Both the position numbers and the translations under genes were made by a program. Source: Rhodococcus pseudokoreensis (GTDB lineage Bacteria > Actinomycetota > Actinomycetes > Mycobacteriales > Mycobacteriaceae). Taken from it: a stretch of 64,000 nucleotides of DNA. Where the stretch lies: the NCBI RefSeq assembly GCF_017068395.1, contig NZ_CP070619.1, forward strand, positions 7,006,001 to 7,070,000. Reading direction: 5' to 3'. Each line of letters begins with the position of its first letter. Position 1 is the first letter of the stretch. The notes beneath the pieces were generated by a model. It ran no database searches. It was not told where the DNA came from and was given only the letters and a program-made list of their open reading frames with translations. Shown one piece after another: positions 2,993 to 48,586 of the stretch.

Positions 2993-3703
2993 ATGACCAC
3001 GGAACTGGCGGCCCCGGCCGAGACGGACGTCCATCCTCTGGACGACGCGATTCGTGAATCCCTGCGCGGCGAGCACGCGCACTTCGCCCGGTGGTCGGGC
3101 CGGGTGGCGCGGTATCACCCGGACGTCGCGCCGCACGTCGGCCACCCGGACGCCCTGGTGGACGAGGACTGGACGGACCTGGCGGCACTGCTCGGCCCGT
3201 CCGCGACGGCCGCGCTCCGTGGATTCGGTCACACGCCGCCGCCGGGCTGGGAGGTCCTGGACACGTTCGGTCTGGTCCAGATGGACGGCACCGCGCTGGA
3301 CGTCGAGCCGGACCCGGACGCCGAAGTCCTCGGCGCAGAAGATGTTCCGGAGATCCTCGATCTGATCGGCCGCACCCGGCCCGGACCCTACCTGCCGCGG
3401 ACCATCGAAATGGGGACCTACCTCGGGTTCCGGGTCGACGGCGAACTCGTCGCGATGGCGGGAGAGCGGCTGCATCCGCCCGGCTGGACCGAGATCAGCG
3501 CGGTCTGCACCGACGAGCGTTTCCGGGGCCGCGGATTCGGTGCCCGGCTCGTCCGCGCCGTCGGGGCCGGTATCCGCGCCCGCGGGGAGACGCCGTTCCT
3601 GCACGCCGCGCAGTCGAACACGACGGCGATCCGGCTGTACGAGAGCCTGGGCTTCACCCTCCGCAGGCAGTCCGCCCTCACCGTCGTCCGGACACCCGCG
3701 TAG
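2993..3703 (+). CDS. GNAT-family N-acetyltransferase
   Basis: This 236-residue protein has a C-terminal GNAT domain. The acetyl-CoA binding loop reads RFRGRGFGARLVRAV (about residues 178-192) and the terminal motif is NTTAIRLYESLGF. The N-terminal half is a less conserved extension. It lies 9 nt after the flavin reductase and probably belongs to the same transcript. Acetylation of an amine or sulfonamide-like substrate, or detoxification, is possible, but no substrate can be deduced. Its TAG stop forms the first bases of a palindromic repeat element that separates it from the convergent LLM gene. Confidence 0.82.
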   Translation: MTTELAAPAETDVHPLDDAIRESLRGEHAHFARWSGRVARYHPDVAPHVGHPDALVDEDWTDLAALLGPSATAALRGFGHTPPPGWEVLDTFGLVQMDGTALDVEPDPDAEVLGAEDVPEILDLIGRTRPGPYLPRTIEMGTYLGFRVDGELVAMAGERLHPPGWTEISAVCTDERFRGRGFGARLVRAVGAGIRARGETPFLHAAQSNTTAIRLYESLGFTLRRQSALTVVRTPA

Positions 3704-3774
3704 GCGGCTCCGCCGCCCGTGCGTGGTTAACGAGTCTCTGGACTCACTAACCACTCACGGGGCGCGAAGCGCCC
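3703..3774. repeat. Three-hairpin 3'-end repeat, copy 1 (family A)
   Basis: The element starts with a GGCGG-ctc-CGCC hairpin, continues with a long imperfect inverted repeat (CGTGCGTGGTTAACGAGT opposed by ACTCACTAACCACTCACG) and ends with GGCGCGAAGCGCC. Near-identical copies occur at 20062 and 21777. It sits between convergent genes, contains the TAG stop of the upstream GNAT gene and encodes the last residues and the TAA stop of the opposite-strand LLM gene. It probably acts as a bidirectional transcription terminator or 3'-end stabiliser, although no T-tract is present. Confidence 0.85.
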
Positions 3775-5010
3775 TCGCAGCGTGGACTCCGCGTACTCGT
3801 GCCGGAAGATCCCCTTCTCGCGGAGCAGCGGCACGACGTGGTCGACGAAATCGGTGAGGCCGGAGGGAAATCCGTCCGGCATCAGATTGAATCCGTCCGC
3901 CGCGCCCGCCACGAACCACTCTTCGATGGTGTCGGCGATCTGTTCGGGGGAGCCGACGACGAGCCGGTGGCCGAAGCCGCCTGCTCTGCGCAGCAGTTCG
4001 GACACCGAGTACCGGCTCTCCAGTGCCAGCCGCACGACGGCTTCCCGGAACCCGAGGGAACCGGAGAACGACGGGTCGACGGGCGCCAGCAGCAGGTCCT
4101 CCGGAATCGGCCGGTCCGGGTCGAGCGAGCTCAGATCGACGCCGAGCATCCCGCCGAGCCGCTCGGCGGAGAAACCGCCGGCGGCCTTGGACTCCCAGTC
4201 CTCGTAGCGCGCGACGGCCTCGGCCTCCGTGCTGCCCACCACCGTGACGAGGCCGGGAAGGATCTTCACCGACCGGGGGTCGCGACCGGCCGCGCGCGCG
4301 ACGTCCTTCACCTCCCGGTAGTGCTGCCGCCCGGCGTCGAGCGTGAGCTCTGCCGAGAACACCGCGTCGGCGCTTCGTCCGGCCAGCGCGCGGCCCTGCG
4401 GTGAACCGCCGGCCTGCACGAGCAGCGGGTGACCCTGCGGCGACGGCGGTACGGGCAGCACGCCGTGCACGTGGAAGTACTCCCCGTCGTGGTGCACCGG
4501 GTCACCGGTGGCCGCCGATTCCCACAGCGCCGTGACGACGTCCACGAACTCGGTGGCCCGGCGGTACCGCGACTCGCGGTCGGGAATCCGGGAGAGACCG
4601 AAGTTGTGGGCCGTCCCGGCGTGGAACGTGGTCACCACATTCCACGCCACCCGCCCGCCGGACACGACGTCGAGGGACAGGAACCGGTCCGCGAGGTCGA
4701 ATGGGTCGTTGAACGTCGTCGACGCCGTGCCGATCAGCCCGAGGTGCTCCGTCGCGCTCGCCACCACCCCGAGAACGGTGGTGGGTTCGAGCGCCCTGGT
4801 CGGCTTGACGGCCGGATCCTCGCGGAGCGCGGGACCGTCCGCGAGGAACAGCGCGTCCAGCGTGCCGCGTTCCGCGATCTTCGCGACCTCGGTGTAGTAG
4901 TCCGGGTCGATGAACGACGTCGGGTGCAGATCGGGGGCCCGCCACGCGGACGGGTGGAACCCCACGTCGAGCACGTTGACGTTGAGGATGACCTCTCGTT
5001 GCGCGGGCAT
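3727..5010 (-). CDS. LLM-class FMNH2-dependent monooxygenase (NtaA/SnaA/DszA type)
   Basis: This 427-residue luciferase-like TIM-barrel oxygenase belongs to the NtaA/SnaA/DszA group, which uses FMNH2 and O2 on organosulfur or amino-polycarboxylate substrates. Typical segments are ILNVNVLDVGFH at the N-terminus, ASTTFNDPFDLADRFLSLD, GGRVAWNVVTT and LLVQAGGSPQGR. It is closely similar along its length to the protein at 16944. Its ATG overlaps the stop of the upstream metQ-type gene (TGATG), placing it in the metN-metI-metQ operon. The last roughly 15 residues, after STLRGR, are read from the palindromic repeat and differ from the tail of the 16944 paralogue, so the original C-terminus appears to have been replaced. 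The true substrate is not known. Confidence 0.88.
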   Translation of the reverse strand: MPAQREVILNVNVLDVGFHPSAWRAPDLHPTSFIDPDYYTEVAKIAERGTLDALFLADGPALREDPAVKPTRALEPTTVLGVVASATEHLGLIGTASTTFNDPFDLADRFLSLDVVSGGRVAWNVVTTFHAGTAHNFGLSRIPDRESRYRRATEFVDVVTALWESAATGDPVHHDGEYFHVHGVLPVPPSPQGHPLLVQAGGSPQGRALAGRSADAVFSAELTLDAGRQHYREVKDVARAAGRDPRSVKILPGLVTVVGSTEAEAVARYEDWESKAAGGFSAERLGGMLGVDLSSLDPDRPIPEDLLLAPVDPSFSGSLGFREAVVRLALESRYSVSELLRRAGGFGHRLVVGSPEQIADTIEEWFVAGAADGFNLMPDGFPSGLTDFVDHVVPLLREKGIFRHEYAESTLRGRFAPREWLVSPETR

Positions 5011-5936
5011 CAGCCGGCGGGCTTCGCGGCGGCGCCGTCGACGTTCGTCTGGGTCCGGTCGGTGGCCCGCGCCGATTCGATGCTCTGCGCCACCCGGGAG
5101 AAGAACGGGTCGCTGTCGATCAACTGGCCGATCCGTGGGTCGTGGTACGTGTCGAGGAGCGGCGCGAAATCGGGGTTGTCCTTGTTCTTCTCGTTGATGA
5201 CGACCTCGATCCAATACAGCTCGTAGGCGGGGGCGTTGAAGACGATCTTGTCGTCCGGCACGTCGGCGAGGTCGAAGTTGGACCGCCAGCCCAGCGCCAG
5301 GTCGACGTCGGGAAGCGTACGCGGCAACTGCGCCAGCGCGGCCTCGGTGAACTCGAACGACTTCGGATTGTCCTTCACGTCGCGGATGGTCACGCGGGAC
5401 GGATCGACACCGTCCTTCAGGGTCAACTGGCCGAGGTCCTGCAGCGTCTGCAGGGCTTGCGCCTGGTTCGACGGGTCGTCGGGAATCGCGACCTTCGCGC
5501 CCTTGGGGAGATCCTCGAGCTTGTCGTACTTCTCGGAATAGCCCGAGAATTTCAGGACGTACCAGTCGCCGGCCGCATACAGTCCGAGGTTGCCGTCCTC
5601 GTTCTGCACCCGCATCCACTCCTGGTGCTGGCTGTGGTTGGCGTCGATGTCGCCCTGGGAGACCGCGAGGTTCTTCAGCTTCGAATCCTCGATCTGCACC
5701 GGTTCGACGGTGATGCCGTGGTCGGGGGCGAGTTTCGCGACCTCCTTGGCGAGTTTCTCGTCCAGGATCGATCCGGCGGTGTACCCGATCTTGAACGTGG
5801 TCTGCGGGCCGTCGCCCTCGGTGCGGTCATTGCCGCCGCCCGCGCCGCACGCGGTCAGGAGGAGCAGCAGGGTGGCCGTCAGTCCGCCTGCCGCGACAGC
5901 GCGGGCGCGCGTCACCGAGCGGGGTCGAGTCGTCAT
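5010..5936 (-). CDS. metQ: MetQ/NlpA-family substrate-binding lipoprotein (second set)
   Basis: This 308-residue lipoprotein has an arginine-rich n-region, a hydrophobic segment and the lipobox LTAC followed by GAGGG. The mature protein shares NlpA-family blocks with the copy at 904, for example KVAIPDDPSNQAQ, and has SFEFTEAALAQLPRTLPDVD near the hinge region. It is the third gene of a metN-metI-metQ-LLM operon and overlaps the LLM start by one base. The coupling of binding protein and monooxygenase suggests that the imported ligand is the monooxygenase substrate, probably an organosulfur compound rather than free methionine. Confidence 0.88.
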   Translation of the reverse strand: MTTRPRSVTRARAVAAGGLTATLLLLLTACGAGGGNDRTEGDGPQTTFKIGYTAGSILDEKLAKEVAKLAPDHGITVEPVQIEDSKLKNLAVSQGDIDANHSQHQEWMRVQNEDGNLGLYAAGDWYVLKFSGYSEKYDKLEDLPKGAKVAIPDDPSNQAQALQTLQDLGQLTLKDGVDPSRVTIRDVKDNPKSFEFTEAALAQLPRTLPDVDLALGWRSNFDLADVPDDKIVFNAPAYELYWIEVVINEKNKDNPDFAPLLDTYHDPRIGQLIDSDPFFSRVAQSIESARATDRTQTNVDGAAAKPAG

Positions 5937-5972
5937 GGGTGTAGTCCTCTGATCTGGGTGGGAGTGAAAGGC

Positions 5973-6662
5973 TCAGCGCCGGTTGGTGAGGCGGGCGGCC
6001 AGATCGCCGACGAGTTGGATGACCTGGACCAGCACCACGAGCGCGATGACCGTCGTGATCATCACGGTGTTGTCGAAACGGTTGTAGCCGTAGGCGATGG
6101 CGAGGTTGCCGATGCCGCCGGCTCCCACCGCGCCTGCGATCGCCGACATGTCGAGGATGCCGATCAACGCGATCGTCAGGGCGCCGATGATGGTCGGGAC
6201 CGCCTCGTGGAGTTGCACTTTGCGGATGATCTGGAAGTTGGAGCCGGCCGATGCGCGGCCCACTTCCACGACCTCGGGTGGAACGTCCCGCAGCGAATTC
6301 TCGATCAGACGCGCGACATACGGGGTGGCGGCCAGCGTCATCGGCACGGCCGCCGCCTGCACCCCGAGCGACGTGCCGACGACGAAGCGGGTGAACGGGA
6401 TGATGGCGGCCATCAGCACCAGGAACGGCAGCGATCGGCCGAGATTGACCACCCAGCCGGCGACCGCGTTGATCGCGGGGTTGGGAAACAGTCCGCGGGG
6501 AGCGGTGTTGTGCAGGACGACCGCCAGCGGAGTGCCCAGCAGGATGGCCAGGATCACCGTGATCCCGACCATCTGCACGGTCTGTTGCAGGGCGGGCAGG
6601 AACAATTCGGGAAGTTCCTCGACCGGGGTCGAGATGGCCAGGACGGCACTGCCGGCGCTCAT
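5973..6662 (-). CDS. metI: MetI-family ABC transporter permease
   Basis: This 229-residue inner-membrane permease pairs with the MetN and MetQ genes on either side. It has about five hydrophobic segments and the permease signature region EVVEVGRASAGSNFQIIRKV, followed by GAVGAGGIGNLAIAYGY, which is characteristic of MetI proteins. I placed the start at the ATG at 6662, which overlaps the metN stop as ATGA; a longer in-frame start would add an arginine-rich leader that merely reads metN sequence. The length fits the family. Substrate specificity is set by the binding protein and is not known. Confidence 0.9.
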   Translation of the reverse strand: MSAGSAVLAISTPVEELPELFLPALQQTVQMVGITVILAILLGTPLAVVLHNTAPRGLFPNPAINAVAGWVVNLGRSLPFLVLMAAIIPFTRFVVGTSLGVQAAAVPMTLAATPYVARLIENSLRDVPPEVVEVGRASAGSNFQIIRKVQLHEAVPTIIGALTIALIGILDMSAIAGAVGAGGIGNLAIAYGYNRFDNTVMITTVIALVVLVQVIQLVGDLAARLTNRR

Positions 6663-7675
6663 GCCGCCGCCTCCTCGGTGGCCAGGACGGTGGCGTTGTC
6701 GTCGACTCGTGTTCCGTGCAGGCCCCACGAGGACAGGAACTCCCCGACGGACGGATGGTCACCGGCGACCGAGATGGTGACGCGGCCCGCCGGGCGTCCG
6801 CCGACCGACTCCACGGTCCCGGACAGCATCCCGATCGACCGGCCGGTGGCCGTGCCGAGAAGTTCGATCCAGTTGGTGGGGACGGTGTCGGAGCCGTAGG
6901 TGACGTGCCACAGCACGTCCCGGTCTTCCGCGGTGATGTGGGAACGGTCCGGGAGCAGCCCGACGCCGAGTTCGGAACGGGGGTCGCGGAGGAGGTCGAT
7001 CACCGGGCCCGATTCGACGACCCGTCCCGCGTCGAGGACGGTGACCACGTCGGCGACCTGGCGGACGACGTCCATTTCGTGGGTGATCAGCACGATCGTC
7101 AGCCCGAGGTCGTCGCGCAGTTCGCGCAGCAACGCGAGGATGGATCGGGTGGTGGCTGGGTCCAGTCCGGACGTCGCCTCGTCCGACACCAGGACCTTGG
7201 GGGCCAGTGCCAGCGAGCGGGCGATGCCCACGCGTTGCCGCTGCCCGCCGGACAGTTGCCGGGGGTAGAGGTCGGCCTTTTCGGACAGGCCCACCCGCTC
7301 GAGGAGTTCCGCGACCCGTGCCCGTCGCTCGGCGCGGCCGACGCCGGCGAATTCCAGCGGCAGCGCCACGTTCTCGGCGGCGGTGCGCCGGGCGAGGAGG
7401 CTCGACGCCTGGAAGATCGTGCCGATCGCGCGGCGCTGATCCCGCAACCGCCGTTCGGACAGCCCGGAGACGTCCGTCCCGTCGAGGAGGATGCGCCCTT
7501 CGGACGGACGCTCGAGCAGGCTGATGATCCGCGACAGCGTGGTCTTGCCCGCCCCGCTCTGGCCGATCACCGCCGCGATCTGCCCGGTGCCGACGGAGAA
7601 GTCGATGTCGTGGAGCACCTCGACGGAGCGGGTTCTCTTCCCGAATCGTTTCGTGACGGAACGGACTTCGATCAT
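6659..7675 (-). CDS. metN: MetN-family ABC transporter ATP-binding protein (second set)
   Basis: This 338-residue ATPase is the first gene of the metN-metI-metQ-LLM operon. Motifs are Walker A GQSGAGKTT (about residue 38), signature LSGGQRQRVGIARSLA, Walker B VLVSDEATSGLDP and the switch histidine ITHEMDVV. The C-terminal 90 residues form a NIL-type domain (VTYGSDTVPTNW, PAGRVTISVAG), as in MetN proteins, where that domain senses the transported amino acid. It resembles the metN at the window start, so the island holds two parallel importers. Upstream lie an inverted repeat and no recognisable SAM riboswitch. Confidence 0.92.
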   Translation of the reverse strand: MIEVRSVTKRFGKRTRSVEVLHDIDFSVGTGQIAAVIGQSGAGKTTLSRIISLLERPSEGRILLDGTDVSGLSERRLRDQRRAIGTIFQASSLLARRTAAENVALPLEFAGVGRAERRARVAELLERVGLSEKADLYPRQLSGGQRQRVGIARSLALAPKVLVSDEATSGLDPATTRSILALLRELRDDLGLTIVLITHEMDVVRQVADVVTVLDAGRVVESGPVIDLLRDPRSELGVGLLPDRSHITAEDRDVLWHVTYGSDTVPTNWIELLGTATGRSIGMLSGTVESVGGRPAGRVTISVAGDHPSVGEFLSSWGLHGTRVDDNATVLATEEAAA

Positions 7676-42073: not shown

Positions 42074-42493
42074 ATGTCAGAGGGCGATATGACGTGGCCG
42101 GACAGTGTCATCGGTTCACTGGACGGGACCGGTGTGCCGCGACCTCCGCTGGCGAGCGTCCCAGGATTGCCGCCGCTGCTCGGCGGACCGGACGTCACGG
42201 TCGTCAAGGTCGACCCCGACATGCTCCGTGCGATGTCCGGTTCGCTCGCCGCCATCGCCCGTGAGGTCGAGGCGCTGGGCGGCCGGCGGAGCTTCGACGA
42301 CGCCGGCCGGGCTGTCGAGGGATCCGACACCGCCGCCGCGTGCCGGGACGCCGGCGACATCCTCGCGTCCGCGCTCGGAGTCGCAGCCAGTCGCATCGAC
42401 GAGATGGCGTTCATCGCGGGCGACGGGGCCGAGAACTACGACGTCACCGACACGACGTTCGCTTCGCAGCTGTCGGCGATGGGAGAGCTGTGA
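42074..42493 (+). CDS. EspC-like type VII secretion-associated protein
   Basis: This 139-residue protein resembles the EspC/DUF2580 group of ESX-secreted proteins: VKVDPDMLRAMSGSLAAIA, a helical hairpin, and a C-terminal ENYDVTD. Y122-x3-D126 is the YxxxD/E type VII secretion signal. AGGGGGAAAG precedes ATG 42074; another ATG at 42050 is possible. Its stop overlaps the GTG of the large downstream protein, so the two are translationally coupled and may be secreted as partners. No ESX core component lies in the window. Confidence 0.78.
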   Translation: MSEGDMTWPDSVIGSLDGTGVPRPPLASVPGLPPLLGGPDVTVVKVDPDMLRAMSGSLAAIAREVEALGGRRSFDDAGRAVEGSDTAAACRDAGDILASALGVAASRIDEMAFIAGDGAENYDVTDTTFASQLSAMGEL

Positions 42494-44838
42494 TTCCGCG
42501 TCGGTCGCAATTGCACGTCTGGAACCCACGGGACCTGACGTTGGCAGGTGAGGAAATCGGTCGGACCGCCGAAGACACGCGAAGCCGGGCCGAGGACGTC
42601 TATCGGGTGGTTGCGGATCTGGGCCTCCACGACGACTGGCGCGGTCCGTCGCAGGCCGCCGCCGAGCAGCGGGCGAACACCGAGCGGACGGAATTCCGTC
42701 GGCTCGCAGACGATCTGGAAGATCTGTCGACTGCGCTGGTGGGAGGGGCCGATCGTCTCGGTCATGCGCGGGACTACGTCGCCACCGTCATCGACAAGGC
42801 CGCGACCGACGGATTCACCGTCTCCGACGACTGGCAGATCGTCAGTCAGCCGAGGACGATGAGTGACGCCGAAGCCGCCGAGCACGCCGACCTGATGGAG
42901 TACTGGCGCAGCCAGCTCGATGGTGCACTGACGGAACTCGACAACGCCGATCGGGACATGGCGACGGCGATCCGGGACGCCCTCGGGGCCGTCGCGGCGA
43001 GTGCCCCCGCGTCGGCGGGCCTGTCGGGGCACGAGGGCACCGCACTGGGCGAGCAGGTCGCGCGGGGCGGCCCTGACATTCCGCAGGACGTCCGTGACCG
43101 CGTTGCCCGGGAGATCGCGGCCGCCGGGCTCACCCCCGAACAGGTGAGGACGCTGGCCGACGGCGGCAAGGTCACCGACGTTCCGCAGGGAACGATGGAT
43201 TTCCTCCAGCAGTTCTACACCGCAGCCGGCAAGGACGGCTTCCTTGCACTGTCCGAGCAGTACAGCGAGAACGGTCGCACCGAGGCCGCGAGCGCGCTGT
43301 CCAACGGCCTCGCCGTCGTGTCGAACTACAACGTCGGCAGCGCAGCCGGTGACGTCGGCGGACAGAGTCACATCCCGGAAAGCCTTCGTGGGCTGTTCGA
43401 GGGGCCGGTGACGTCGACCGGCAACCTCACGAAGGGCGCGCACGACGCCCCGCAGCCGTCGACGGTCGTGAACAACGGCCACGACCTGGCACGATTCACC
43501 AAGGCGTTCGGACTGGCGGATCCTGCTGTCCAGCAGGGCAGCGAGCTGAGCGAGAATCTCCTCTCCCGTGCCGGCGAGATCGCGTCGGCCACCAACGACA
43601 AGAGTCTGCTGATCGGCGACTCCTTCGACCACAACGTTCTGGGCCGCGACGGCGTCGACACACTCCTGCAGGACATGGTCGGGGTCGGTGGCCGCGACCA
43701 CGTCGCCGTCCACAACATCCTGTCCGGTGAAGGCATGCCGACCGATTACAACCGCGACGACGTCGTCATGCCGCTGCTCCAGCGCGATTGGGCCGAGGGC
43801 GGCGAACAGAACGTCGCCGGGATGTTCGACTGGATCGCCGACGACGCCAGACCCGCCGACCCGTCGGACCCCGGAGAGATATACCGGTCGCAACAAGCCG
43901 GTGAATCGGCCTTCGGGCTGGCACAGATCCTCGCGGCCAAAGACGCCGAACTGCTCGACATCCCCGGGATGAAAGGCCAGGCCATCGGCGAGGTGAACCC
44001 CGAAATCACACAGGCTCTGGGCACATCACTCGCACCCTACATCGGCAATATGGTGGGCGTGCCCGGAGACTTCGCAGGCACTTCCGGCTTCGCCAGCCCG
44101 ACCGGCGGAGAGTTCGGGCTCGAAAACGCTCCCCGCCTGTTTTCGGTGATCGACTCCAACGCCGACGCGGCGGGCTACTTCAACGCACAGGCATTCGGTA
44201 TGTCGGCTCAGCTCGAGCAAGCGTGGGCGTTGGAAGGTCGCACTCTGCAGATGCCGCACTACGAGTACGGTTCTTGGGCAGGCAGTATTCAAGGTGTGGT
44301 CGACAAGGGGTTCGATCTCGAATTCGCGGACCGCGCAGGGGACGAATCATCGAATAACACAGCCGGTTTCGAGAGCAAGGGTATCGCATACGACACGATC
44401 AGAACTGTGGTCAGCAAGGGTGTTGAATTCATCCCTGGTGCCGGGCCGATCATTTCGAGCGGAATCGATCTCGGTGATCCGGCTTTCAAGAGTGCGGTTA
44501 TGGGTGCTGTGCCCGACGGGACAGTCCAGCCGAACACGCAGTTCGGAGAGGATTCGCTACTTGCAAAGCAGTACTACCAGATTGCACTCGGTCTTCAAGC
44601 GGCGAATGGCGGCTCGCTTGAGCCCTATATTGGTCTCGAGGACTTTCGGGATGGTGTGAACGGCCCCCTGCTGCCGTATGACGAGATTGTCTCTGACCGT
44701 CCCAGTTTTACAACCCCGCTGCTTTCTTCGAGCTTGGCGGGATACATCACTGAAGCAGGCTTCACCGGAGTTGGTGAGTTTGTCGACGCAATGAACGCAG
44801 GACGTGAGCAAGTGCAGGGCATGGAGTTCGGGCGATGA
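42490..44838 (+). CDS. Large WXG-headed putative type VII-secreted protein with divergent C-terminus
   Basis: The 782-residue product starts at a GTG in a 4-nt overlap. Residues about 1-100 form a WXG100-like helical hairpin, with DDWRG at the turn and LADDLEDLSTALVGGADRL after it. The middle (about 130-600) is a large helical region of the type annotated in rhodococci as TPR-repeat-region proteins. From about 44280 the base composition drops and the protein changes character (GVEFIPGAGPIISSGIDLG, QYYQIALGLQAANGG). This looks like an exchanged C-terminal module, as in secreted polymorphic proteins. No catalytic motif is recognisable. It overlaps the lipoprotein gene downstream. Confidence 0.75.
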   Translation: MIPRRSQLHVWNPRDLTLAGEEIGRTAEDTRSRAEDVYRVVADLGLHDDWRGPSQAAAEQRANTERTEFRRLADDLEDLSTALVGGADRLGHARDYVATVIDKAATDGFTVSDDWQIVSQPRTMSDAEAAEHADLMEYWRSQLDGALTELDNADRDMATAIRDALGAVAASAPASAGLSGHEGTALGEQVARGGPDIPQDVRDRVAREIAAAGLTPEQVRTLADGGKVTDVPQGTMDFLQQFYTAAGKDGFLALSEQYSENGRTEAASALSNGLAVVSNYNVGSAAGDVGGQSHIPESLRGLFEGPVTSTGNLTKGAHDAPQPSTVVNNGHDLARFTKAFGLADPAVQQGSELSENLLSRAGEIASATNDKSLLIGDSFDHNVLGRDGVDTLLQDMVGVGGRDHVAVHNILSGEGMPTDYNRDDVVMPLLQRDWAEGGEQNVAGMFDWIADDARPADPSDPGEIYRSQQAGESAFGLAQILAAKDAELLDIPGMKGQAIGEVNPEITQALGTSLAPYIGNMVGVPGDFAGTSGFASPTGGEFGLENAPRLFSVIDSNADAAGYFNAQAFGMSAQLEQAWALEGRTLQMPHYEYGSWAGSIQGVVDKGFDLEFADRAGDESSNNTAGFESKGIAYDTIRTVVSKGVEFIPGAGPIISSGIDLGDPAFKSAVMGAVPDGTVQPNTQFGEDSLLAKQYYQIALGLQAANGGSLEPYIGLEDFRDGVNGPLLPYDEIVSDRPSFTTPLLSSSLAGYITEAGFTGVGEFVDAMNAGREQVQGMEFGR

Positions 44839-45596
44839 GGGCTCAGATGGCGACCGTCTGTGCCGCTGCAGTGGTCTTATCGGTTACTGCTTGTGGGACC
44901 GATGAAGCGACAACGCCGATCGATCCCACGGTAAGAGTTGTCAAGGAATACAGCGTTCCCGAGAACGTCGACTACAACGTTCGATGGTCGGCGGATCCAG
45001 GAATCGACCTATTGAGCAGTCCTGCGGTGGCGGTCCGGGCGTATATGGAGTCGTATTATCTCGCGATTCATGGGCATGCACTGGCGGCCGGCTACCCAGG
45101 TTTCGCCGACGCGACGTCGCAGCAGCGCGACCGCGTCGACTTCGACTATTGGAATGGTTCGGACCTGGAACGACTCGTCGGTACCCAGTTCGAGCACGTG
45201 CTGGCGCTGGCACCGACCGAGGACGGGTGGGCCGCCACGGTGTGTTCGGGCAACTACGCCGTAATGGCCGAGAAGGAGGGTCGATTCTTCAATCTGACGG
45301 GCCCGTCCCCGCAGGCAGAAACAGTGAGGATCGTGGCGCCTGAGCAAACGCTGTCGGTCAGTTCTGAGTCGCTTGCTGCGGAGGGCGCAGAGCGTGCTCC
45401 GTCGGCGGATGTATTCGCTGGTTGGAAGATTGCTGAGCACGAGCAGGCCGCGCGCGACCAGAACGCATATACCGAGTGCGACTCGCGGATGCCCGATGCC
45501 AGGGAAGCGCGTCCGCAGAAGGCGAACCTCCCACACGACGCCCCGTATCCGACGCTTGCTCCGTTTCCGGGTTGGCCGAGGTACGACGAGAACTGA
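44835..45596 (+). CDS. Lipoprotein of unknown function, coupled to the WXG protein
   Basis: This 253-residue protein has a short signal peptide with lipobox VTAC, so it should be anchored outside the membrane. A conserved fold is not recognised; the middle has AVRAYMESYYLAIHGHALAAGY and a YWNGSDLERLVGT segment typical of secreted mycobacterial-type lipoproteins. The 4-nt ATGA overlap with the WXG-headed gene and the shared AT-richer start suggest co-inheritance. It might protect the producer from the secreted protein, or help its export or assembly; both are guesses. A terminator follows. Confidence 0.75.
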   Translation: MRAQMATVCAAAVVLSVTACGTDEATTPIDPTVRVVKEYSVPENVDYNVRWSADPGIDLLSSPAVAVRAYMESYYLAIHGHALAAGYPGFADATSQQRDRVDFDYWNGSDLERLVGTQFEHVLALAPTEDGWAATVCSGNYAVMAEKEGRFFNLTGPSPQAETVRIVAPEQTLSVSSESLAAEGAERAPSADVFAGWKIAEHEQAARDQNAYTECDSRMPDAREARPQKANLPHDAPYPTLAPFPGWPRYDEN

Positions 45597-45598
45597 GG

Positions 45599-45630
45599 AG
45601 CGCCCTTCCTGCTGCTGGCGGAAGGGCGCT
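45599..45630 (+). terminator. Terminator of the EspC-like/WXG/lipoprotein operon
   Basis: AGCGCCCTTCC pairs with GGAAGGGCGCT over 11 bp around a 10-nt loop, starting two bases after the lipoprotein stop. Confidence 0.85.
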
Positions 45631-46235: not shown

Positions 46236-46271
46236 CGCACCCGGGAGGCCATGAAACCAACGGAGGCAATC

Positions 46272-46595
46272 ATGAGAATGGGTAGGAGGGTGGCCGCGGT
46301 GGCAGTGTTCGCGGCTTCGATCGGATTGGGAGCATCCGGTGTCGCCTGGGGAAGCAGTCTCGACTCGGCGGTGCCGGTGCGTCGGCCGGATGTCATTCAG
46401 CCGATGCCGCCCGGGTTCCCGCAGAACGGTCCGATCGGATGCGACGACTGGGCGGAACCGTACGAGAACAATGTCCCGGCGTGGGGCACCGATCCGTACA
46501 ACCAGTTCGACAATTGGTGCGACGGTCCCGATGACGGGCTTTCCGCGCAGCAGCCGCCGGTCAATGACGACCAGGGCCGGACGGTCAATCCCTGA
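46272..46595 (+). CDS. Small secreted protein, tandem copy 1
   Basis: This 107-residue protein has a signal peptide ending near ASGVAWG and a mature part with CDDWAEPYENNVPAWG and PYNQFDNWCDGPDDG, two cysteines that could form one disulfide. GGAGG precedes ATG 46272. The protein at 46762 shares the signal peptide and this core almost exactly, so the pair arose by tandem duplication. No family or function is recognised; it may be a cell-envelope or extracellular stress protein. Confidence 0.8.
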   Translation: MRMGRRVAAVAVFAASIGLGASGVAWGSSLDSAVPVRRPDVIQPMPPGFPQNGPIGCDDWAEPYENNVPAWGTDPYNQFDNWCDGPDDGLSAQQPPVNDDQGRTVNP

Positions 46596-46761: not shown

Positions 46762-47094
46762 ATGAAGGTCGGCATGAGATTGGCTGCGGTCGCTGTGTTC
46801 GCGGCCTCGATCGGTTTGGGAGCATCCGGTGTCGCCTGGGGTGACGCGTTCGACTCGGCAGCCGTACCCGTGCGGGCGCCCAATAATGTTGCGCCTCTGC
46901 CTCCCGGCGTTCCGCCGTACGGTCCGGCGGGTTGTGACGACTGGGCGGAACCGTACGAGAACAATGTCCCGGCGTGGGGTGCCGAACCGTACAACCAGTA
47001 CGACAATTGGTGCGACGGCCCGGACGACGGGCTTCCGCAACCGGCCACGTACAGCGGTGACGAGGGCGGTGGCGACTCGCCGAACGAGCCGTAA
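46762..47094 (+). CDS. Small secreted protein, tandem copy 2
   Basis: This 110-residue paralogue of the 46272 product has the signal peptide VAVFAASIGLGASGVAWG and the same CDDWAEPYENNVPAWG...NWCDGPDDG core, with a different glycine-rich tail (DEGGGDSPNEP). GGGAGG precedes the ATG. It has its own copy of the promoter-like block and a strong terminator behind it, so it is expressed separately from copy 1. Confidence 0.8.
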   Translation: MKVGMRLAAVAVFAASIGLGASGVAWGDAFDSAAVPVRAPNNVAPLPPGVPPYGPAGCDDWAEPYENNVPAWGAEPYNQYDNWCDGPDDGLPQPATYSGDEGGGDSPNEP

Positions 47095-47629: not shown

Positions 47630-48586
47630 GTGGAGTTGACCGAACGTCAGACCGACCGGGCTGCAGGCGTATTGATCGCCACCGCCGCGGGCGATGCGCT
47701 CGGGGCGGGATACGAGTTCACCGTCCCGGCGGCCGATGCGGTGATCGACATGGTCGGGGGCGGCATGTTCGAGTGGGCGCCGGGGGAGTGGACCGACGAC
47801 ACGTCGATGGCTGTCGCCATCGCGGAGGTGGCAGCGTCTGGAGTGGACATCGGCCGGGGTGACGGACTGGATGCCGTTGCTGCACAGTTCGTTCGGTGGA
47901 TCGATTCGAACCCGCCCGACGTCGGCAATCAGACGCGCGCCGTGCTGTCGGCCCGCGACGGCTCGGCCACGGCCATGCAGGAGCGGGCGCGCAGCATCAC
48001 GGGGAGGAAGGGCGGCAACGGTTCGCTGATGCGGACCGCCCCGGTCGCGCTGGCGTATCTCGACGACGCCGACGCGTGTGCCGAGGCCGCGTACCAGATC
48101 GGCGCCCTCACCCACGACGATCAGCGTGCCGGGGAGGCGTGCCGGTTGTGGTCCCACGCGATCCGGCACGCGGTGCTGTTCGGGACGTTCGACGGGGTGC
48201 GGGGATACCTGCAGGGGGCGCCCGCCGAGGTCGGCGAGTACTGGGGACCGCTGCTCGACCAGGCCGAACGCGGCACACCCGCGGACTTCCCGAAGAACGG
48301 CTGGGTGGTTCACGCCCTCCAGACGGCGTGGTGGGCGATCAGCGGCGCCGACGATTCGGGGCCGCATCACCTTCGGCTGGCGCTCGAGCGGGCCGTCCGG
48401 GCGGGAAACGACACCGACACCACCGCGGCGATCGCGGGTGGGTTGCTCGGTGCCCGATGGGGTGCGTCGGCGGTCCCTGACGGGTGGCGCCGGATCCTGC
48501 ACGGCTGGCCGGGATATTCCGCGGACGACCTCGAGCGGCTGGCGATAGCGGCCGTGCGGAGGGGTGCACCGGCCGACCGACGCTGA
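47630..48586 (+). CDS. ADP-ribosylglycohydrolase (DraG-family)
   Basis: This 318-residue enzyme should remove ADP-ribose from a protein or small molecule using two metal ions. Family motifs are GDALGAGYEF, WTDDTSMAVAIAE (metal-binding aspartates) and the C-terminal AGNDTDTTAAIAGGLLGA. The GTG start has AAGGGGG nearby. There is no ADP-ribosyltransferase in the window, so its target is unknown. The inverted repeat ahead of it suggests regulated expression. Confidence 0.9.
   Translation: MELTERQTDRAAGVLIATAAGDALGAGYEFTVPAADAVIDMVGGGMFEWAPGEWTDDTSMAVAIAEVAASGVDIGRGDGLDAVAAQFVRWIDSNPPDVGNQTRAVLSARDGSATAMQERARSITGRKGGNGSLMRTAPVALAYLDDADACAEAAYQIGALTHDDQRAGEACRLWSHAIRHAVLFGTFDGVRGYLQGAPAEVGEYWGPLLDQAERGTPADFPKNGWVVHALQTAWWAISGADDSGPHHLRLALERAVRAGNDTDTTAAIAGGLLGARWGASAVPDGWRRILHGWPGYSADDLERLAIAAVRRGAPADRR

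What the first reader, a model, noticed from the sequence alone, without database searches (positions are those of the whole stretch)
42074..45630. Candidate type VII-secreted three-gene system with an exchanged C-terminal module
Seen: an EspC-like protein with a YxxxD signal, a 782-residue protein with a WXG-type head, and a lipoprotein are joined by GTGA and ATGA overlaps and closed by a terminator. The C-terminal part of the large protein (from about 44280) and the start of the lipoprotein gene are AT-richer than everything around them. Inference: the large protein is exported by an ESX system, its C-terminal part is a swapped effector module, and the lipoprotein is its partner or protector. 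The window contains no ESX core genes, so export would depend on machinery elsewhere.
Basis: partly seen in the sequence, partly recalled or inferred. Interest (0 to 1): 0.78.

Follow-up and report, generated by a model that had tools for sequence, protein, structure and literature searches.

The report
Swappable exported effector with surface lipoprotein partner
A soil Rhodococcus carries a three-gene unit that looks like an exported antibacterial-type effector plus the surface lipoprotein that would protect the producer, and related strains have exchanged the effector's tip together with the matching lipoprotein as one cassette.

Summary
The three genes are real: a small EspC-like protein (42074-42493), a 782-aa protein with WXG head and EspA-like TPR_23 domain (42490-44838), and a lipoprotein (44835-45596). 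Against R. koreensis, 100-bp bins are 86-99% identical up to 44050, 39-79% from 44050 to 45550, and 86-99% beyond. In 16 paired loci, three classes of the large protein's last ~80 residues match three lipoprotein classes 16 of 16 times, while the heads follow another tree; one R. opacus is recombinant inside the cassette. A paralogous locus shows the same. In 28 genus genomes, 29 of 29 lipoprotein hits lie behind such a large protein.

The same unit sits in five mycobacterial phage/prophage records and an M. abscessus plasmid; one phage copy is annotated 'polymorphic toxin immunity protein'. Best reading: a chromosomal ESX polymorphic effector-immunity cassette whose immunity protein is a surface lipoprotein. 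Export, toxicity and binding are untested. Corrections: the cassette starts near 44050; its parts are old homologous alleles, not unrelated modules; the 'terminator' is not conserved. New variant of a known kind.

The parts
42074..42493 (+). Gene A: small EspC/WXG100-like partner, 139 aa, with C-terminal YDVTD (YxxxD) motif
   Evidence: PF10824 E 0.032, below cut-off; motif in 8 of 9 orthologues; relatives in L090 and L143 pass the EspC and WXG100 cut-offs
42490..44838 (+). Gene B: 782-aa exported-effector candidate; WXG/EspA-like head, TPR_23, variable C-terminal third
42490..42999 (+). Head of B (aa 1-170), related to the heads of other Rhodococcus proteins that carry Abhydrolase_8 or Tox-REase-5 behind it
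43117..43833 (+). TPR_23 (PF23275) domain of B, aa 210-448
44050..45550 (+). Exchanged cassette: B from about aa 521 through most of C; sharp fall in identity on entry and exit
44050..44650 (+). First part of cassette (B about aa 521-720); in R. opacus G009 of the R. koreensis type while the rest is of the window type
44587..44835 (+). Tip of B (aa 700-782): three allele classes that match the C classes 16 of 16
44835..45596 (+). Gene C: lipoprotein, 253 aa, lipobox Cys20, Cys137 and Cys215; proposed cognate immunity lipoprotein
45600..45629 (+). 10-bp perfect inverted repeat behind C; perfect form not conserved, no terminator call

Best explanation
A chromosomal polymorphic effector-immunity cassette of a type VII secretion system. 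Steps: (1) A and the head of B pair and carry B out through the genome's single ESX core (inferred). (2) The C-terminal third of B, above all its last ~80 aa, acts on or binds neighbouring cells of related strains outside the cytoplasmic membrane (inferred). (3) C, anchored outside the membrane, binds the matching tip and protects the producer (inferred from allele matching, gene order and position). (4) Strains replace B-tail and C together by homologous recombination (exchange shown by sequence comparison), using the conserved B stretch before ~44050 and the conserved C end plus downstream gene as arms (inferred). Old allele classes are thus kept and passed between species.
For: Bounded fall in identity 44050-45550. 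Fourfold-site synonymous divergence from the window is 0.03-0.53 in B columns 1-540, 0.46-0.84 in columns 601-780, 0.28-0.94 in most of C, then 0.14-0.57 (7 sites) at the end of C and 0.12-0.42 in the next gene; relaxed constraint alone does not give that. Tip and C classes agree 16 of 16; Mantel r with C is -0.09 to 0.20 for B 1-520 and 0.90 for 721-760. On the head tree the classes need 8 changes and each is rejected as a clade (p 3e-4, 5e-6, 3e-4); on tip and C trees 2 (the classes were named from tip and C). Repeated at the paralogue locus: L054/L047 heads 95%, tips 35%, C 32%; over 36 pairs r(C,tip) 0.93, r(C,head) 0.67. In 28 genus genomes 29 of 29 C hits lie behind a B, and all 25 B loci whose end is not cut by a contig end have C; 5 of the 25 carry an extra C or B fragment behind. 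Same three genes in 5 opened phage/prophage records (a sixth, Baudelaire, not opened) and plasmid pGD54, C with lipobox in 6 of 6; Aegeus gp34 is annotated as polymorphic toxin immunity protein. Related head on Tox-REase-5. One ESX core in the genome.
Against: No known toxin family in B, no strong hydrophobic segment, no usable model of B (pLDDT 50). Tip and C are neighbours, so linked inheritance explains part of the match; only 1 of 16 loci shows a break inside the cassette. Median dN/dS is below 0.2, no sign of an ongoing arms race. Twelve of 16 relatives' B loci in the wider order have no C-type lipoprotein or other lipoprotein array behind them (L089, L092-L094, L096-L103). In the phage/plasmid set the head also correlates with C (0.73 against 0.80 for the tip), and the simple YxxxD pattern is in only 1 of 6 of its A proteins.
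Confidence: 0.6

Rival explanations
1. Self-identity (kin recognition) without killing: exported B and surface C mark the strain and gate contact-dependent behaviour such as DNA transfer, as the polymorphic Msmeg0070 in the esx1 mid locus does.
For: Matched allele classes exchanged across species; a polymorphic ESX-linked identity gene is published for M. smegmatis (PMC9040860: outline with abstract, passages and section 17 read); no toxin family in B.
Against: Msmeg0070 is described as proline-rich with a transmembrane segment and lies in esx1; the window locus is about 6 Mb from the genome's EccB. I did not compare the sequences. Phage and plasmid copies and a head-related Tox-REase-5 protein fit a toxin system better.
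Confidence: 0.2
2. Surface complex under outside pressure: C anchors exported B at the cell surface; phages or predators that touch the complex drive its diversity, and the two parts are exchanged together because they must fit.
For: C should lie outside the membrane by its lipobox; the exchanged stretch would be the exposed part (inference); dN/dS stays low, as for a fitted complex.
Against: Does not explain carriage on phages and a plasmid, or extra C copies and B remnants behind the pair in 5 of 25 loci.
Confidence: 0.14
3. No exchange: a fast-evolving, weakly constrained tail and lipoprotein.
For: Tail and C are the least conserved parts.
Against: Synonymous divergence jumps too, trees conflict, identity returns to 86-99% after 45550, median dN/dS below 0.2.
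Confidence: 0.03

Closest known systems
PT-Imm / PEST cassettes of M. abscessus-chelonae prophages (PMC10654092, PMC9434293)
   Same: Three genes: small WXG protein, large protein with WXG head and variable C-terminus, immunity gene; recombination within and between cassettes. The window's B and C are homologous (profile E 3e-44 to 2e-63 and 3e-25 to 3e-30) to the second MabR cassette (prophiFVLQ01-1, FSQJ01-1, FSAT01-1, also prophi79-1), for which PMC9434293 could name neither toxin nor immunity domain (passages).
   Different: Chromosomal at a fixed place (MaoC-like neighbour in 9 of 9 orthologues, desaturase in 7 of 9), not shown to be phage-borne. Immunity candidate is a lipoprotein; the word does not occur in the main text of PMC10654092. 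Allele classes of one homologous tip rather than unrelated toxin domains.
TslA / TilA of Staphylococcus aureus (PMC10730906)
   Same: T7SS-exported antibacterial protein with an adjacent immunity lipoprotein outside the membrane, in variable copies (passages).
   Different: TslA is a phospholipase with reversed domain order; B has no lipase family match and its variable part is C-terminal.
EspA/EspC-type ESX substrates
   Same: B has the EspA-like TPR_23 domain; A resembles EspC below cut-off; a relative of B (L088) passes the EspA_EspE cut-off.
   Different: B's C-terminal third and lipoprotein partner are not part of the EspA/EspC description known to me (recalled).
Msmeg0070 mid self-identity gene (PMC9040860)
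   Same: ESX-linked, highly polymorphic, proposed kin recognition.
   Different: Described as proline-rich with a transmembrane segment, in esx1 (section 17); the word lipoprotein does not occur in the main text.

Membership tests
ESX polymorphic toxin-immunity (PT-Imm) cassette | Three co-oriented genes: small WXG/EspC protein, large WXG-head protein, immunity gene | tested here: met
   order and orientation; same order in 5 opened phage/prophage records and pGD54. That the third gene gives immunity is not tested.
ESX polymorphic toxin-immunity (PT-Imm) cassette | Conserved head, variable C-terminus that co-varies with the immunity gene | tested here: met
ESX polymorphic toxin-immunity (PT-Imm) cassette | C-terminal toxicity, relieved by the immunity protein | not testable with these tools
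   no experiment; no toxin family found in B
PEST cassette in the strict sense | Encoded by a prophage | tested here: not met
   fixed locus beside a conserved MaoC-like gene in 9 of 9 orthologues; no prophage finder was run; homologues do occur on phages
EspA-like TPR_23 (PF23275) | Pfam match above cut-off | tested here: met
   190 bits against cut-off 27
EspC (PF10824), gene A | Pfam match above cut-off | tested here: inconclusive
   15.1 bits against 23.5; relatives in L090 and L143 pass, those in L031, L144 and pGD54 do not
TslA/TilA lipase system | Lipase domain in the toxin | tested here: not met
   no lipase family in B at E up to 1
TslA/TilA lipase system | Adjacent immunity lipoprotein | tested here: inconclusive
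   adjacent lipoprotein present; immunity not tested
NTF2-like fold (gene C) | Clear structural match to NTF2-like proteins | tested here: inconclusive

The most novel reading that the evidence does not exclude
Actinobacteria have a class of ESX-exported polymorphic effectors policed from outside the membrane by surface lipoproteins, kept as old trans-species allele classes like self/non-self loci. In one lineage (genome G061) the partner is replaced by three tandem lipoproteins that are copies of the effector's own C-terminal half and lack about 70 residues in the stretch that holds the conserved P-G-G helix: immunity by a membrane-tethered, defective mimic that occupies the effector's receptor or poisons its assembly.
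Probability: 0.25. Interest if true: 0.82.

Novelty: new variant of a known kind. Interest (0 to 1): 0.66.

Why it matters
If right, a chromosomal ESX system of a non-pathogenic, tractable actinobacterium carries a kin-discrimination locus, with natural class-matched and class-mismatched strains (R. opacus, R. koreensis, R. jostii, R. wratislaviensis) ready for a direct test of whether mycobacterial-type ESX systems serve competition between bacteria. It would also give a function to a prophage cassette whose toxin and immunity parts were reported as unpredictable (PMC9434293, passages), and place immunity outside the membrane.

Tried and rejected

Pairing of the 6 rests on equal contig length and, where given, strain name. 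Some of the 16 are close kin (window and NCIMB 12038: heads 97%). Class cut-offs were set by me, a different one for each part. For one search I took the 26 rows that reach beyond the head and left out the front pieces of two broken copies, four small fragments and the head-only rows. Of 20 stretches fetched, 16 gave a B to examine; G060 (2 stretches) held fragments, G056 and G067 gave no match to my B profile. Of 16 head-only stretches fetched, one (L125) gave no head at E 1e-4.
Full report
What is there. Three genes on the + strand overlap by 4 bases each: A 42074-42493, B 42490-44838, C 44835-45596. B carries a WXG-type head (below cut-off), the EspA-like TPR_23 domain at 210-448 (E 6.6e-56) and no known domain in its last third; A is weakly EspC-like and ends in YDVTD; C has no family above cut-off but a lipobox and two further conserved cysteines. 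The window lies in a 9.87-Mb genome whose B is identical over residues 530-782 to a record named Rhodococcus opacus.

The exchange. Nine other genomes of the genus carry A, B and C in the same order, with a MaoC-like gene found in 9 of 9 and the desaturase in 7 of 9. B 1-500 is 82-100% identical in 50-residue windows; after that, identity falls. The nearest of the nine by desaturase and head, R. koreensis (L040; named), is 86-99% identical in 100-bp bins up to 44050 (32 of 34 bins at 91% or more), 39-79% in the 15 bins from 44050 to 45550, 86% in the next bin and 90-99% beyond. Synonymous differences from the window at fourfold sites are 0.03-0.53 in B columns 1-540, 0.27-0.77 in 541-600, 0.46-0.84 in 601-780 and 0.28-0.94 in most of C, then 0.14-0.57 (7 sites only) at the end of C and 0.12-0.42 in the MaoC-like gene; the lower values in the tail belong to loci of the window's own class. 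Median dS between classes is about 1.9 (tip) and 2.3 (C), near saturation, against 0.43 in the head, with median dN/dS below 0.2. So tail and lipoprotein are old, constrained allele classes that move as a block.

The match. In 16 paired loci the distance between C proteins does not follow B 1-520 (r -0.09 to 0.20), follows 521-720 partly (0.35-0.67) and 721-760 closely (0.90). Three tip classes and three C classes agree 16 of 16; the first part of the cassette disagrees in one, R. opacus G009, which is R. koreensis-like from 44050 to 44650 (86-97%) and window-like from there (81-90%). On the head tree the classes need 8 changes and are rejected as clades; on the tip and C trees, from which they were named, they need 2 (C class II has support 87/94, not starred); on the tree of the first part, 3. 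Tip-to-C correlation (0.89) exceeds first-part-to-tip correlation (0.66), but with one recombinant the separation of fit from linkage is weak.

A second case. The own genome holds a paralogous locus, found also in other genomes of the genus. There L054 and L047 share 95% of the head but only 58% of the first part, 35% of the tip and 32% of C; over 36 pairs r(C,tip) is 0.93, r(C,first part) 0.89, r(C,head) 0.67. In the 10 phage/plasmid pairs the contrast is weaker (0.80, 0.74, 0.73).

Distribution. C is found in 19 of 28 genus genomes. All 29 C hits lie within 2 kb behind a B; of 26 hits to B that reach beyond the head, 25 have C behind (24 within 400 bp, one broken copy at 420 bp) and the 26th ends at a contig end. 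Five of these 25 loci carry a further C or a B fragment behind the first pair. In the wider order 16 of 200 genomes have TPR_23; of 16 B loci that I could examine there, three have a C-type lipoprotein behind B, one (G061) has three other lipoproteins, and twelve have neither.

The head as a carrier. Many further hits in the genus match only about positions 1-170 of B. Of the 15 such proteins printed, ten were scanned: four are Abhydrolase_8 and one (L120) is Tox-REase-5, a known toxin domain; five have no C-terminal family, four of them with glycine-rich tails by eye. The head of L120 is 24% identical to that of B.

Mobile relatives. tblastn with C finds six phage/prophage records of mycobacteria and two records of a 31-kb M. 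abscessus plasmid. In the five phage records opened and in pGD54 the same three genes stand in a row, B has TPR_23 above cut-off, and C has a lipobox; YxxxD is seen in only one of the six A proteins. Aegeus gp34 is annotated as polymorphic toxin immunity protein. PMC9434293 (passages) reports that for the second MabR cassette neither toxin nor immunity domain could be predicted; PMC10654092 (section 8 in full) reports that two other cassettes of this plan are toxic without their immunity gene. I did not show those two to be homologues.

A mimic. In G061 (L088) B is followed by three tandem lipoproteins whose mature parts match B's own C-terminal half (for the first, 30% over B 376-554 and 40% over 654-718) and lack about 70 residues in between. 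This is a different partner behind the same kind of effector.

Export. The genome has one EccB and one EccC over the cut-offs, beside a T7SS_Rv3446c protein, about 6 Mb from the window and none in it. I take the core as ESX-4-like from recall of where Rv3446c lies. Export of B by it is not shown.

Judgement. Shown: gene structure, bounded exchange, class matching, co-occurrence in the genus, mobile homologues. Inferred: export, action on neighbours, protection by C. Against: no toxin domain, no sign of diversifying selection, relatives without C. I rate the effector-immunity reading 0.6, non-lethal self-identity 0.2, surface complex under outside pressure 0.14.

Noticed in passing
46251-46595 and 46762-47094 (+): Two adjacent small proteins with signal-like N-termini (by eye), 77% identical over 91 residues, no Pfam family at E up to 1; a tandem duplication of unknown role.
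   Followed up: partly
47630-48586 (+): ORF that by eye resembles an ADP-ribosylglycohydrolase (motifs recalled); not scanned.
   Followed up: no
L088 7440-10297 (-), genome G061: Three tandem lipoproteins that are copies of the C-terminal half of the effector before them, lacking about 70 residues.
   Followed up: yes
L132 1559-3307 and the 189-aa ORF overlapping its end (-): A head-sharing Abhydrolase_8 protein is also followed, with a 4-base overlap, by an ORF that looks like a lipoprotein by eye.
   Followed up: no
L120 2289-3392 (-), genome G020: Related WXG head joined to Tox-REase-5, while PMC3482391's table lists T2SS, T5SS, T6SS and PrsW, not T7SS, for that toxin (passage).
   Followed up: partly
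L109 (pGD54) 3447-6768 (+): Three-gene cassette on a 31-kb M. abscessus plasmid; its B head is 95% identical to the prophiFSAT01-1 copy, but the tip 76% and C 73%.
   Followed up: partly
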